Positions 7,110-12,156 of a stretch of DNA of 14,986 bases are shown here, in pieces. How positions within the stretch are numbered: the stretch's first letter is position 1; every line of letters begins with the position of its first letter. This DNA comes from Desulfobacteraceae bacterium (GTDB lineage: Bacteria; Desulfobacterota; DSM-4660; Desulfatiglandales; Desulfatiglandaceae). Made by a program: the position numbers and the translations under genes. The notes below the pieces were generated by a model that ran no database searches, had not been told where the DNA came from, and saw only the letters and a program-made list of their open reading frames with translations. The stretch lies in NCBI GenBank assembly GCA_020349865.1, contig CP070700.1, positions 219,503 through 234,488 of the forward strand. The letters are read 5' to 3'.

Positions 7110-7360
7110 ATGGCGAATGCAAAGGGGCTCGGAAAGGTCGCCCTTTATTCCATAATTTTTTTCTCTGCCTCTCTTTCTCTGTTTCAGCTTGGAATCGGTA
7201 AGCAGATTGTGGCGGCTTTATTTATCATCGCCTTTGGGGCCACGGCATTAGCAGTGTGGCCTTGGCCTTTAGACTGGGCGGAAGAGACGCGGCTGCTGAA
7301 TACTTGAAGAAATGGCTGGGAGGGAAAAAACCCCTGGCCAAGCAGTCAAAAACTGTATGA
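7110..7360 (+). pseudogene. Truncated, frameshifted copy of the TM-helix membrane protein
   Basis: This matches the last 78 codons (150-227) of the intact gene at 1979-2662 with roughly 90 percent nucleotide identity by eye: MANAKGLGKVALYS through FGATALAV. Two extra bases (TG, about 7255-7258) then shift the frame. In the next frame homology resumes with LGGRDAAAEYLKKWLGGKK and runs to TGA at 7358-7360, a few codons past the intact stop. The N-terminal two thirds is deleted and upstream sequence is fused in its place. A shifted open frame reads on to 7307, but a functional product is unlikely. Confidence 0.88.
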
Positions 7361-9823: not shown

Positions 9824-10348
9824 ATGAACTGGCTAACGAAAGAGAAATGGTCTCCGTACATGGCCGGCGCATTGACCGGGCTCCTGATGATTTCATCCGT
9901 CTGGGTTGCCGGCAGGTATTTTGGTGCCTCTACCACCTTTGTCCGCTCCGCCGGCATGGTCGAAAAGATTTTCAATGCGGAACGGGTCTCCAAAACGGAT
10001 TATTTTATCAAAGAAGTGCCTAAGATCGACTGGCAGTGGATGTTTGTGGTGGCCATTTTGATCGGCTCCCTTATCGCGTCAAGAACTTCAGGCAGCTTCC
10101 AGTGGAAGTCCTTGCCCGATATGTGGGAGAGACGTTTTGGCCCGAGCCGCGGTAAACGCGCCCTCGCCGCCTTTACCGGTGGGCTGATTGCCATGTTTGG
10201 TGCGCGTCTGGCTGACGGGTGACCGAGCGGTCACGGGCTGAGCGGTTCGCTTCAGCTGGCAGTAAGCGGATTGATTGCCATCGCCTGTTTTTTCATAGGC
10301 GGTGTCATTGTTGCCCGGGTCCTGTATGGAGGAGGTGACCAGACATGA
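9824..10348 (+). CDS. YeeE/YedE-family half-transporter, probable selenoprotein (TGA = Sec133)
   Basis: Membrane protein of the YeeE/YedE (sulfur transport, DUF395) family; members such as TsuA import thiosulfate using membrane cysteines. The start at 9824 follows AAGGAGA. The frame meets TGA at 10220-10222 but continues 41 codons with undoubted family sequence: GARLADG-[TGA]-PSGHGLSG, then LQLAVSGLIAIACFFIGG, ending in TGA at 10346-10348. Family members have Cys where the TGA lies (GCxSGHGxSG). A SECIS-like hairpin with a GG-starting loop lies 14-33 bases downstream. Total length is 174 residues with selenocysteine 133. The end overlaps the next half-transporter by ATGA. Alternatives are a Cys-to-stop mutation or a base-call error; intact homology after the TGA argues against old decay. 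Confidence 0.75.
10237..10256 (+). promoter_or_regulatory. Candidate bacterial SECIS hairpin
   Basis: GCTGAGC (10237-10243) pairs with GCTTCAGC (10249-10256) leaving one bulged T, around a GGTTC loop (10244-10248). The loop begins with GG, 21 bases after the last base of the TGA, and a bulged U lies near the loop. These agree with known bacterial SECIS rules (G in the first two loop bases, loop 16-37 bases after UGA). The selenium factors selA, selB, selC and selD are not in the window. Confidence 0.6.
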
Positions 10349-10872
10349 AAGAACTAGTCTACGGTCTTTTTACCGGTGTTTTGTTTGGCATTTTTTTACA
10401 AAAAGCCCAGGTCATTCGCTATGACAAGCAACTTGGCGCGTTGCGTCTTATGGACATGACCATCGTCAAGTTTATGCTATCGGGCATTTTGGTAGCCATG
10501 GCAGGGGTTTATCTGCTTCAGGATCTTGGTTTGGCCAAGCTGTCGGTAAAGCCGACAATCATGGGCGGCAATATTCTGGGAGGGCTTATCTTTGGAGCGG
10601 GTTGGGGGTTGCTGGGTTACTGCCCCGGGACCTCGGCCGGTGCGCTGGGTGAAGGCCGATGGGATGTGGTGTGGGGCATCCTGGGGATGTTAGCAGGTGC
10701 GGCCATTTTTGCAGAAGCATACCCAAGCCTTAAAAAAACAGTTCTGACATGGGGACATTACGGCACGATCACCCTGCCCCAGGTACTCGGAATGAACCAC
10801 TGGCTTATCATTATCATCTTTATCGTTGGAGCATTCGTTCTTTTTCGATGGTTTGAGAAAAGAGGGCTTTGA
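10345..10872 (+). CDS. YeeE/YedE-family second half-transporter
   Basis: A 175-residue integral membrane protein, the second half of a split YeeE/YedE transporter. Hydrophobic helices lie near 5-20, 40-58, 72-92, 106-124 and 153-168. The signature GWGLLGYCPGTSAGALGEG (86-104) carries Cys93, equivalent to the conserved cysteine motif of the family's C-terminal half. The ATG at 10345 overlaps the stop of the first half as ATGA, and a strong GGAGGAGGTG site lies inside the end of that gene, so coupled, balanced synthesis of both halves is expected. Substrate is probably a sulfur (possibly selenium) anion; thiosulfate is the best family-based guess. Confidence 0.9.
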   Translation: MKELVYGLFTGVLFGIFLQKAQVIRYDKQLGALRLMDMTIVKFMLSGILVAMAGVYLLQDLGLAKLSVKPTIMGGNILGGLIFGAGWGLLGYCPGTSAGALGEGRWDVVWGILGMLAGAAIFAEAYPSLKKTVLTWGHYGTITLPQVLGMNHWLIIIIFIVGAFVLFRWFEKRGL

Positions 10873-11031: not shown

Positions 11032-11121
11032 TGTTCCAATTGTTGCATGAGAGTATTATCAAGAATTTGGAACCCGTTTTAGGATCTTACTCTAAAATAT
11101 CCAGAGAAAAGGAGGTCAGAA

Positions 11122-12156
11122 ATGTCTAATAATCAAACAGGAATGGATCGAAGGCGATTTATGAAACTCGCTGCAATCGCAGCGGGAAGTGCCAGTCTTC
11201 TCGGAAGGTCGTCCCTGGCTCGGGCGCAGTCAATTGGTGATGAGCCTGACAGTCCCATTTATCTGGCGCTCAACATATCGAAGGTGGCCAACAACGAAGA
11301 GAGCTTCCGGCTGATGCACAAAGTTGGACCTAAGGTCTGTATCACCACGGCCACACATCCGGGCTTTGTGGGGTTCCAGGCAAACATCCAGACCGGCATT
11401 CTGCCCCTGGCAGGCCGATATGGTGGTGGAAAAGTACACATGGAAAAGGAACTGAATCCCATTCGTAACTATCAATACACCATGTGGAAGCGGTGGGAGG
11501 ACCACGACGAGTTTCACCTACAGCAGTTCGACAGGATATTTGAGCTGTGCGGAAGCTGTTTGTCCATGGTCATCGAGGGTCCGTGGGAGCCGGTGTACCG
11601 CGTGGTCAGGGCCAAGATGGCCCCTATCAGAACCATGGGCCAGATTACCGACCTGGGAGTGGACATGCAGCAAAAAAAGGACTTTATCCGCTTCGCGACG
11701 CCTCAGCGCTGTGTTGCCATGGCCGAGCATACGGTGATGCCTGGAAAAGAGGAGGCGTTTGAGGCAGGCGCCATTTCCACCATGGAGGCGCTCTCTCACT
11801 CGACCGGTTTTCTGGGATATATGATTCTCAAGCAGATCGGCGTGTGTGCCCTGGGCAGCTTTATGCTGGATCCTGCGTCAATGGCGGAGGCCTTGCAGAC
11901 GCTGGGCGCAAACCCGCCCGATGATCCGAAACCTCTCTTTGAAACCCCTCAAGCCATGCCGAGTCCACCGGAGTATTTGATTCACAGTGAATGGGATGCA
12001 CCCGAGATAGCGCAGTTGGGCTTTGGCAAAGTGCTGGTCAATCACCAAATCAGAAAAATCCATGATGACGGCGTCATGGCAAATCTGATCCGCGGGCCCT
12101 ACATCATGTTCTTCCAGCCTATGATGGAGGAGCCGGGATGGCGTACCATGCTTTAA
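11122..12156 (+). CDS. sor: Sulfur oxygenase/reductase with Tat signal peptide
   Basis: SOR uses a mononuclear non-heme iron site and cysteine-bound persulfide to convert elemental sulfur and O2 into sulfite, thiosulfate and sulfide. Of 344 residues, 1-42 are an extension with a twin-arginine signal (DRRRFMK at 9-15, hydrophobic AAIAAGSASLLG, then LARAQ near the likely cleavage at about 36). The rest matches archaeal SOR. The Acidianus residues Cys31, His86, His90, Cys101, Cys104 and Glu114 appear at a constant offset of 42: Cys73 in GPKVCITT, His128 and His132 in DHDEFH, Cys143 and Cys146 in ELCGSC, Glu156 in GPWEP. The C-terminal GPYIMFFQPMMEE fits too. AGGAGGTC precedes the ATG. Characterised SORs are cytoplasmic 24-mers without export signals, so an exported SOR is unusual. 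Family identity is very secure, export strongly suggested. Confidence 0.95.
   Translation: MSNNQTGMDRRRFMKLAAIAAGSASLLGRSSLARAQSIGDEPDSPIYLALNISKVANNEESFRLMHKVGPKVCITTATHPGFVGFQANIQTGILPLAGRYGGGKVHMEKELNPIRNYQYTMWKRWEDHDEFHLQQFDRIFELCGSCLSMVIEGPWEPVYRVVRAKMAPIRTMGQITDLGVDMQQKKDFIRFATPQRCVAMAEHTVMPGKEEAFEAGAISTMEALSHSTGFLGYMILKQIGVCALGSFMLDPASMAEALQTLGANPPDDPKPLFETPQAMPSPPEYLIHSEWDAPEIAQLGFGKVLVNHQIRKIHDDGVMANLIRGPYIMFFQPMMEEPGWRTML

What the first reader, a model, noticed from the sequence alone, without database searches (positions are those of the whole stretch)
11122..12156. Sulfur oxygenase/reductase carrying a Tat export signal
All core SOR residues (Cys73, His128, His132, Cys143, Cys146, Glu156) are retained at a uniform +42 offset from the Acidianus numbering; the extra 42 residues are a clean twin-arginine signal. 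Characterised SORs are cytoplasmic, O2-dependent, and form 24-subunit shells. An exported version would move sulfur oxygenation/disproportionation to the periplasm or beyond, where S0 particles and polysulfide are more accessible, and would need either Tat export of subunits with assembly afterwards or export of folded oligomers. I know of no described Tat-type SOR.
Basis: partly seen in the sequence, partly recalled or inferred. Interest (0 to 1): 0.88.

Follow-up and report, generated by a model that had tools for sequence, protein, structure and literature searches.

The report
Sulfur oxygenase with an export signal
An oxygen-using sulfur enzyme that is usually described as working inside the cell carries a conserved export tag here and in dozens of relatives, several of them in apparent sulfate-reducing bacteria, so it probably works outside the inner membrane.

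Summary
ORF 11122-12156 (344 aa) is a complete sulfur oxygenase/reductase (SOR) with all six core residues at +42, and residues 1-35 form a twin-arginine (Tat) signal behind an AGGAGG ribosome-binding site. The signal is no oddity of one sequence: 72 of 194 SORs examined carry it (window included; 2 more uncertain). R11 and F13 are invariant in 72 of 72 and R10 in 71, while the signal otherwise drifts (44% mean identity against 83% in the core). All 72 lie in one lineage, mixed with close relatives (69-85% identical) that start at the core and lack it. Six held genomes with the Tat form have one SOR each; 5 of 6 have DsrA and DsrD, 1 of 6 cytochrome bd, 0 of 6 a haem-copper oxidase. TatC was found in only 4 of 6. 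Most likely the folded, iron-loaded subunit is exported, assembles in the periplasm and dismutates sulfur with O2 where a sulfate reducer meets oxygen. Export, assembly and activity are inferred, not shown. The papers searched describe no Tat-type SOR. New variant of a known enzyme.

The parts
11110..11115 (+). ribosome-binding site AGGAGG, 6 bases before the ATG
   Evidence: a GGAGG-type site also precedes the Tat-form starts of L001, L002, L003 and L024
11122..11226 (+). Tat signal peptide, residues 1-35 (RR at 10-11, F13, K15, h-region 16-28, A-R-A 33-35)
   Evidence: pLDDT 48-64 in the blocks of residues 1-40
11149..11154 (+). twin-arginine codons (residues 10 and 11)
   Evidence: R10 71/72 and R11 72/72; synonymous codon changes among eight genes
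11227..11253 (+). linker, residues 36-44
   Evidence: alignment
11254..12153 (+). SOR catalytic core, residues 45-344, with C73, H128, H132, C143, C146, E156
11122..12156 (+). Tat-type sulfur oxygenase/reductase gene, stop codon included
9824..10348 (+). linked YeeE/TsuA-like half transporter; in-frame TGA (10220-10222) at the conserved Cys, probable selenocysteine
10345..10872 (+). second YeeE/TsuA-like half transporter (DUF6691-like); its start overlaps the previous gene's stop (ATGA)

Best explanation
This is a sulfur oxygenase/reductase exported by the Tat pathway. Shown from sequence: a complete SOR core with every core residue, behind a conserved Tat signal with its own ribosome-binding site. 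Inferred: the subunit folds and takes up its single iron (H128, H132, E156) in the cytoplasm, is exported folded as a monomer or small oligomer, is cut after A33-R34-A35, and assembles into the hollow 24-mer in the periplasm, since a 15.5 nm sphere should be too large for the Tat pore. There it uses O2 on elemental sulfur or polysulfide, bound as persulfide on C73, to give sulfite, thiosulfate and sulfide; classical SORs need no electron carrier for this. In hosts that look like sulfate reducers it would remove O2 and turn periplasmic sulfur into sulfite and thiosulfate that the Dsr pathway can use; in some genomes a linked YeeE/TsuA-like pair could import the thiosulfate.
For: SOR identity: Pfam 474.8 bits; the six core residues kept in 72 of 72 Tat rows, except C146 in 71 of 72; AlphaFold2 model pLDDT 87.8, best PDB match 6qpa with TM 0.89 by target length; chimney-lining positions hydrophobic in 72 of 72 Tat rows. 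Signal: R10 71/72, R11 72/72, F13 72/72, K15 66/72, A33 50/72, A35 60/72, while mean pairwise identity is 44% in the signal against 83% in the core; synonymous codon changes at the arginines; Tat-signal model matches 23 of 57 members at E <= 0.1. Kin without the signal have their own ribosome-binding site at the core start in L004, L005, L007, L009, L011, L012 and L013, and in-frame stops upstream in L007, L009 and L010, so the difference is real. One SOR in each of the 6 Tat-form genomes, so no cytoplasmic copy was found behind it. TatA/B in 6 of 6, TatC in 4 of 6. DsrA 5 of 6, DsrD 5 of 6, cytochrome bd 1 of 6, haem-copper oxidase 0 of 6. For comparison, the 10 genomes with the short form (G004-G013): DsrA 3, DsrD 3, bd 4, haem-copper 2 (same calls). 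YeeE-like pair near SOR in the window and 7 of 24 related loci.
Against: No export, cleavage, assembly or activity was measured. TatC was not found in 2 of 6 Tat-form genomes (G001, G003); G003 is a fragmented draft, but G001 is a single-contig genome recorded as a chromosome, so gaps explain it less well there. The window's own score for the Tat model is just under the cut-off. The Tat label needs 10 changes on the quick tree of 209 rows, 11 on 145 rows and 5 on 59 rows; one Tat clade is borderline rejected on the 145 rows (p-AU 0.0456) but not on the 59 rows with a better model (p-AU 0.24). Repeated loss or gain is therefore likely, and close kin manage without the signal. The Dsr contrast with short-form genomes rests on 6 against 10. 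The YeeE link is shared with short forms, and other neighbours are not conserved.
Confidence: 0.73

Rival explanations
1. Exported, but no longer a sulfur oxygenase/reductase in practice: in anoxic hosts it is a periplasmic sulfur-handling protein, or acts only as an O2 scavenger with little disproportionation.
For: Most held Tat-form hosts lack terminal oxidases; score under NCBIfam's SOR equivalog cut-off; some loci hold incomplete copies (L018, L019, L021). PMC6382920 (passage) says the Thioalkalivibrio SOR has atypically low reductase activity.
Against: All core residues kept in 72 of 72 rows apart from one C146; the core is 83% identical on average among Tat rows.
Confidence: 0.13
2. The N-terminal stretch is a Tat-like signal that is not used for release: the enzyme stays in the cytoplasm or is held at the membrane by an uncleaved signal, because the oligomer forms before export.
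For: A 24-mer would be too big to export; close relatives (69-85% identical) do without the signal; TatC not found in 2 of 6 genomes, one of them a single-contig genome.
Against: RR, F, K and A-x-A are under constraint while the rest drifts; A-x-A is the pattern expected for a cleaved signal; TatA/B in 6 of 6 genomes.
Confidence: 0.12
3. Wrong start codon: the extension is untranslated upstream sequence.
For: 51 close relatives start at the core.
Against: Ribosome-binding site directly before the first ATG; no Met codon between residues 14 and 65 of the window protein; motif conserved in 71-72 of 72 with synonymous codon changes.
Confidence: 0.01

Closest known systems
Sulfur oxygenase/reductase of Acidianus ambivalens (2cb2) and Halothiobacillus neapolitanus (6qpa)
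   Same: fold, iron ligands (H86, H90, E114), C31, C101, C104, extent of the core
   Different: known ones start at the core with no signal and are described as cytoplasmic (wording in PMC12345210 and PMC6335251, passages); chimney positions F133, V137, F141 are I175, L178, M182 here
Bacterial SORs without a signal from Deltaproteobacteria, Syntrophales, Anaerolineales and other records
   Same: 69-85% identity, same core residues, sometimes the same linked YeeE-like pair
   Different: no Tat signal; start codon and ribosome-binding site lie at the core
Desulfobacterota SORs of Bohai Sea sediment (PMC12345210)
   Same: SOR in Desulfobacterota: the paper assigns 33 of its 39 SOR-bearing genomes to that phylum (passage)
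   Different: the paper calls SOR cytoplasmic, and its main text has no occurrence of 'signal peptide', 'SignalP' or 'Tat'; I did not examine its sequences
Tat-exported metalloenzymes in general (recalled)
   Same: signal layout; cofactor loading before export
   Different: no twin-arginine signal among 69 more distant SORs examined or in the papers searched

Membership tests
Sulfur oxygenase/reductase (PF07682) | profile match over the curated cut-off and full length | tested here: met
   474.8 bits against 25, profile 2-300 of 300
Sulfur oxygenase/reductase (PF07682) | NCBIfam equivalog SulOxRed cut-off | tested here: not met
   314.3 bits against 400; a naming threshold rather than a catalytic feature; 57 of 57 members of A1, with and without the signal, match the model at E <= 0.1
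Sulfur oxygenase/reductase (PF07682) | iron ligands H86, H90, E114 and cysteines C31, C101, C104 | tested here: met
   present at +42
Sulfur oxygenase/reductase (PF07682) | SOR fold | tested here: met
   AlphaFold2 model, TM 0.89-0.90 by target length to the ten SOR chains listed first
Sulfur oxygenase/reductase (PF07682) | hollow 24-subunit assembly | not testable with these tools
   chimney positions hydrophobic in the sequence; no complex was modelled
Sulfur oxygenase/reductase (PF07682) | O2-dependent oxygenation and disproportionation of sulfur | not testable with these tools
   no assay
Tat-exported protein | twin-arginine motif, h-region, A-x-A near the N terminus, conserved in relatives | tested here: met
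   the window itself scores 16.6 against a cut-off of 16.7 on TIGR01409
Tat-exported protein | Tat machinery in the host | tested here: inconclusive
   window's genome not held; six related Tat-form genomes: TatA/B 6 of 6, TatC 4 of 6
Tat-exported protein | export depends on RR and TatC | not testable with these tools
   no experiment

The most novel reading that the evidence does not exclude
A lineage of sulfate- and sulfite-reducing bacteria runs O2-dependent sulfur dismutation in the periplasm: an exported SOR cage burns O2 against extracellular sulfur without any respiratory chain, protecting the anaerobe and turning sulfur plus trace O2 into thiosulfate and sulfite that it then respires.
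Probability: 0.4. Interest if true: 0.8.

Novelty: new variant of a known kind. Interest (0 to 1): 0.62.

Why it matters
SOR oxidises and reduces sulfur in one enzyme, and the papers I read passages of place it in the cytoplasm where they say so. A conserved exported form would put this chemistry where sulfur particles and polysulfide are, and would offer a way for sulfate reducers without terminal oxidases to use or tolerate O2 at oxic-anoxic borders. It also poses a clean assembly question: how an iron enzyme that forms a 24-subunit cage is made after export. Metagenome studies that score SOR as a cytoplasmic sulfur-oxidation marker could misplace this activity.

Tried and rejected
Whole genome of the window: not held, so the host's own Tat, Dsr and oxidase genes could not be checked. 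A single origin of the Tat form: tested twice with different answers, left open. A conserved operon partner: cytochrome c (12310) and superoxide dismutase (12796) follow SOR in the window, but the cytochrome c has no match in the 49 loci compared (many overlap one another), and the only SOD match lies about 3.3 kb away in L006; neighbours in L001, L002, L003, L023 and L024 differ. Only the YeeE-like pair recurs. SECIS hairpin behind the TGA of the YeeE half: the window folds better than shuffles (z -2.03; 6 of 200 as good), but L003 folds differently (z -0.99), so support is weak. Limits of the sample: searches found 257, 245 and 162 proteins and list 120 each; unlisted ones were not examined. 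One listed protein (P0140) lacked the anchor motif and was dropped before counts; P0049 and P0092 were set aside as uncertain. My first, strict Tat rule called 66 Tat and 8 extended-without-Tat of 195. Of those 8, five show RR, one HR, two neither; the count of 72 uses the looser rule [HR]R-x-[FL]-[ILMVF] before the core. The divergent SOR chain 9rdn was not followed up. Change made on checking: confidence lowered from 0.75 to 0.73, because G001, which lacks TatC, is a single-contig genome.

Full report
WHAT IS THERE. The ORF at 11122-12156 on the + strand encodes 344 residues. It matches Pfam SOR with 474.8 bits over profile positions 2-300 of 300, and its nearest solved relatives are SOR 6qpa (317.6 bits; Halothiobacillus neapolitanus) and Acidianus SORs. 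In the alignment query residue 47 pairs with Acidianus residue 5, and C73, H128, H132, C143, C146 and E156 pair with C31, H86, H90, C101, C104 and E114. That these Acidianus residues are the catalytic ones is recalled; PMC7398979 and PMC6335251 (passages) state an indispensable cysteine, a non-haem iron site and a hollow 24-mer.

THE SIGNAL. Residues 1-35 have the layout of a Tat signal: M-D-R-R-R-F-M-K, an uncharged stretch 16-28, a basic residue at 29, A-R-A at 33-35. NCBIfam's Tat-signal model scores 16.6 against a cut-off of 16.7. AGGAGG stands 6 bases before the ATG, and the window protein has no Met between residues 14 and 65. AlphaFold2 gives the core high confidence and residues 1-40 low confidence (block means 48-64), as expected for a signal.

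IS IT CONSERVED. Three protein searches listed 194 relatives beside the window's own protein (each lists only its best 120). P0140 was dropped for lacking the anchor motif, which leaves 194 proteins with the window's own. Of these, 72 carry the Tat extension (window included), 2 are uncertain and 120 have none: 51 close ones (numbered up to P0125) and 69 others, 66 of which lie outside the lineage described below. Among the 72, position 10 is R in 71, position 11 R in 72, position 13 F in 72, position 15 K in 66, position 33 A in 50, position 35 A in 60. Mean pairwise identity is 44% over residues 1-36 and 83% over 45-344. In eight genes the arginine codons differ (first: CGA, CGT, CGC, CGG; second: AGG, AGA, CGA) while the residues stay. 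The rows are related by descent, so the counts are not independent, but a fixed motif in drifting surroundings is what a working signal shows. The Tat-signal model matched 23 of 57 members of A1 at E <= 0.1; I read 24 of those 57 as Tat (the matching members are not listed by name).

THE FORMS WITHOUT IT ARE REAL. In L004, L005, L007, L009, L011, L012 and L013 a GGAG-type site precedes a start at or up to about 20 codons before the core, and L007, L009 and L010 have in-frame stops upstream. So two forms exist; those without the signal are 69-85% identical to the window. On the quick tree of 209 rows, whose lineage of close SORs holds 142 rows, all 77 Tat rows lie in one branch of 111 rows (SH-aLRT 91) with 32 signal-free rows and the 2 uncertain ones; the 98 rows outside that branch lack the signal. 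The signal was most simply gained inside this branch and then lost in places. The label needs 10 changes there (mean of shuffled labels about 63). Holding all Tat rows together is borderline rejected on 145 rows with a simple model (p-AU 0.0456) and not rejected on 59 rows with a mixture model (p-AU 0.24). One or several gains stays open.

HOSTS. No genome is held for the window. SOR is rare in the phylum of G001: 10 of 395 genomes have a match, 9 over the cut-off. Six genomes with handles carry the Tat form (G001, G002, G003, G014, G015, G288; G015's copy is cut by a contig end; the genome of L021 was not checked). Each has one SOR match. TatA/B is found in 6 of 6, TatC in 4 of 6 (not in G001 and G003), DsrA over the cut-off in 5 of 6, DsrD in 5 of 6, cytochrome bd in 1 of 6 (G288), haem-copper oxidase in 0 of 6. 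The 10 short-form genomes G004-G013 have DsrA 3, DsrD 3, bd 4, haem-copper 2 (same calls). DsrD marks reductive sulfite reduction (recalled). Most of these are draft genomes, so absences are weak; but G001 is a single contig recorded as a chromosome and lacks TatC, DsrA and DsrD, a point against a simple story there. An enzyme that needs O2, in hosts that mostly look like sulfate reducers without a terminal oxidase, is the surprising part.

NEIGHBOURS. A split YeeE/TsuA-like transporter lies near SOR in the window, L003, L005, L006, L007, L018, L019 and, about 7 kb away, L009: 7 of 24 related loci, several of them cut short by contig ends. It is upstream in the window, L005, L006, L007 and L009 and downstream in L003, L018 and L019. 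It accompanies both forms (window and L003 with the signal; L005, L006, L007, L009 without; the N terminus is missing in L018 and L019). TsuA of Spirochaeta is a thiosulfate importer (recalled; PDB 6leo and 8j4c matched). Thiosulfate is a SOR product, so import after a periplasmic reaction is a reasonable but untested link. The cytochrome c and superoxide dismutase after SOR are not conserved there, and L001, L002, L003, L023 and L024 show differing neighbours, which fits an enzyme that needs no fixed partner.

STRUCTURE. The model (57-row alignment, pLDDT 87.8, pTM 0.82) matches the ten SOR chains at the top of the list with TM 0.89-0.90 by target length, then drops to distant ferredoxin-like monooxygenases. 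Chimney positions F133, V137 and F141 of an Acidianus SOR are I175, L178 and M182, hydrophobic in 72 of 72 Tat rows, so a tetramer channel remains plausible. Position R99, named in PMC7398979 as part of the trimer channel, is E141 here, and E in 44 of the 69 others. SOR particles measure 15.5 nm (PMC7398979, passage). The Tat pore is thought to pass about 7 nm at most (recalled), so subunits or small oligomers would have to be exported and assemble afterwards.

LITERATURE. Searches paired SOR with signal peptide and periplasm (7 papers), twin-arginine (6), Tat or Desulfobacterota (65, 25 listed), periplasmic/mesophilic/24-mer (33, 15 listed), extracytoplasmic (2) and exported/signal sequence (4); one search listed 40 SOR papers since 2022. 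Most were seen as listings only. I read passages of PMC12998232, PMC9751629, PMC8780430, PMC10494364, PMC12345210, PMC5114278, PMC7398979, PMC5023260, PMC6382920, PMC4062416, PMC2864759 and PMC6335251; those passages describe no Tat-type SOR. PMC12345210 reports SOR in 39 Bohai Sea genomes, 33 of them Desulfobacterota, calls SOR cytoplasmic, judges it probably not a key enzyme there, yet found sor among genes upregulated during incubation with sulfide; its main text has no occurrence of 'signal peptide' or 'Tat'. Most subscription papers, and preprints, are not in the library.

VERDICT. The sequence claim is firm. Export is likely. Periplasmic SOR activity is probable, and the role (O2 removal plus supply of sulfite and thiosulfate) is my best inference. 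It is a new variant of a known enzyme, with real surprise in the combination of enzyme, location and host.

Noticed in passing
window 9824-10348 (TGA at 10220-10222): The YeeE/TsuA-like half gene has an in-frame TGA exactly where relatives have the conserved Cys of the G-[C]-[TP]-S-G-H-G motif; reading through ends at an ATGA overlap with the next gene. L003 also has TGA there; L005, L006, L007, L009, L018, L019 have TGC or TGT. Probable selenoprotein of a kind already listed as a GUxSG YeeE/YedE family protein (PMC13188914, passage); whether a link to SOR is in print was not searched. G003 has a tRNA-Sec match (74 bits) and a partial SelB match under the cut-off.
   Followed up: partly
A SOR without the tetramer channel would be odd.
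   Followed up: partly
L018:3549-4007, L019:737-1144, L021:4230-4702, G177:C1:213518-213739: Incomplete or disrupted SOR copies in several genomes (missing N-terminal part, internal gap, in-frame stop): gene decay or assembly faults.
   Followed up: no
window 7110-7345: Frame-broken partial copy of the MscS-like channel gene at 1979-2662 (pieces 92% and 67% identical at the protein level).
   Followed up: no
P0070 and L004: A short-form SOR that groups with Tat forms on the trees (SH-aLRT 83), as if the signal had been lost, with 17 polar residues in its place.
   Followed up: no
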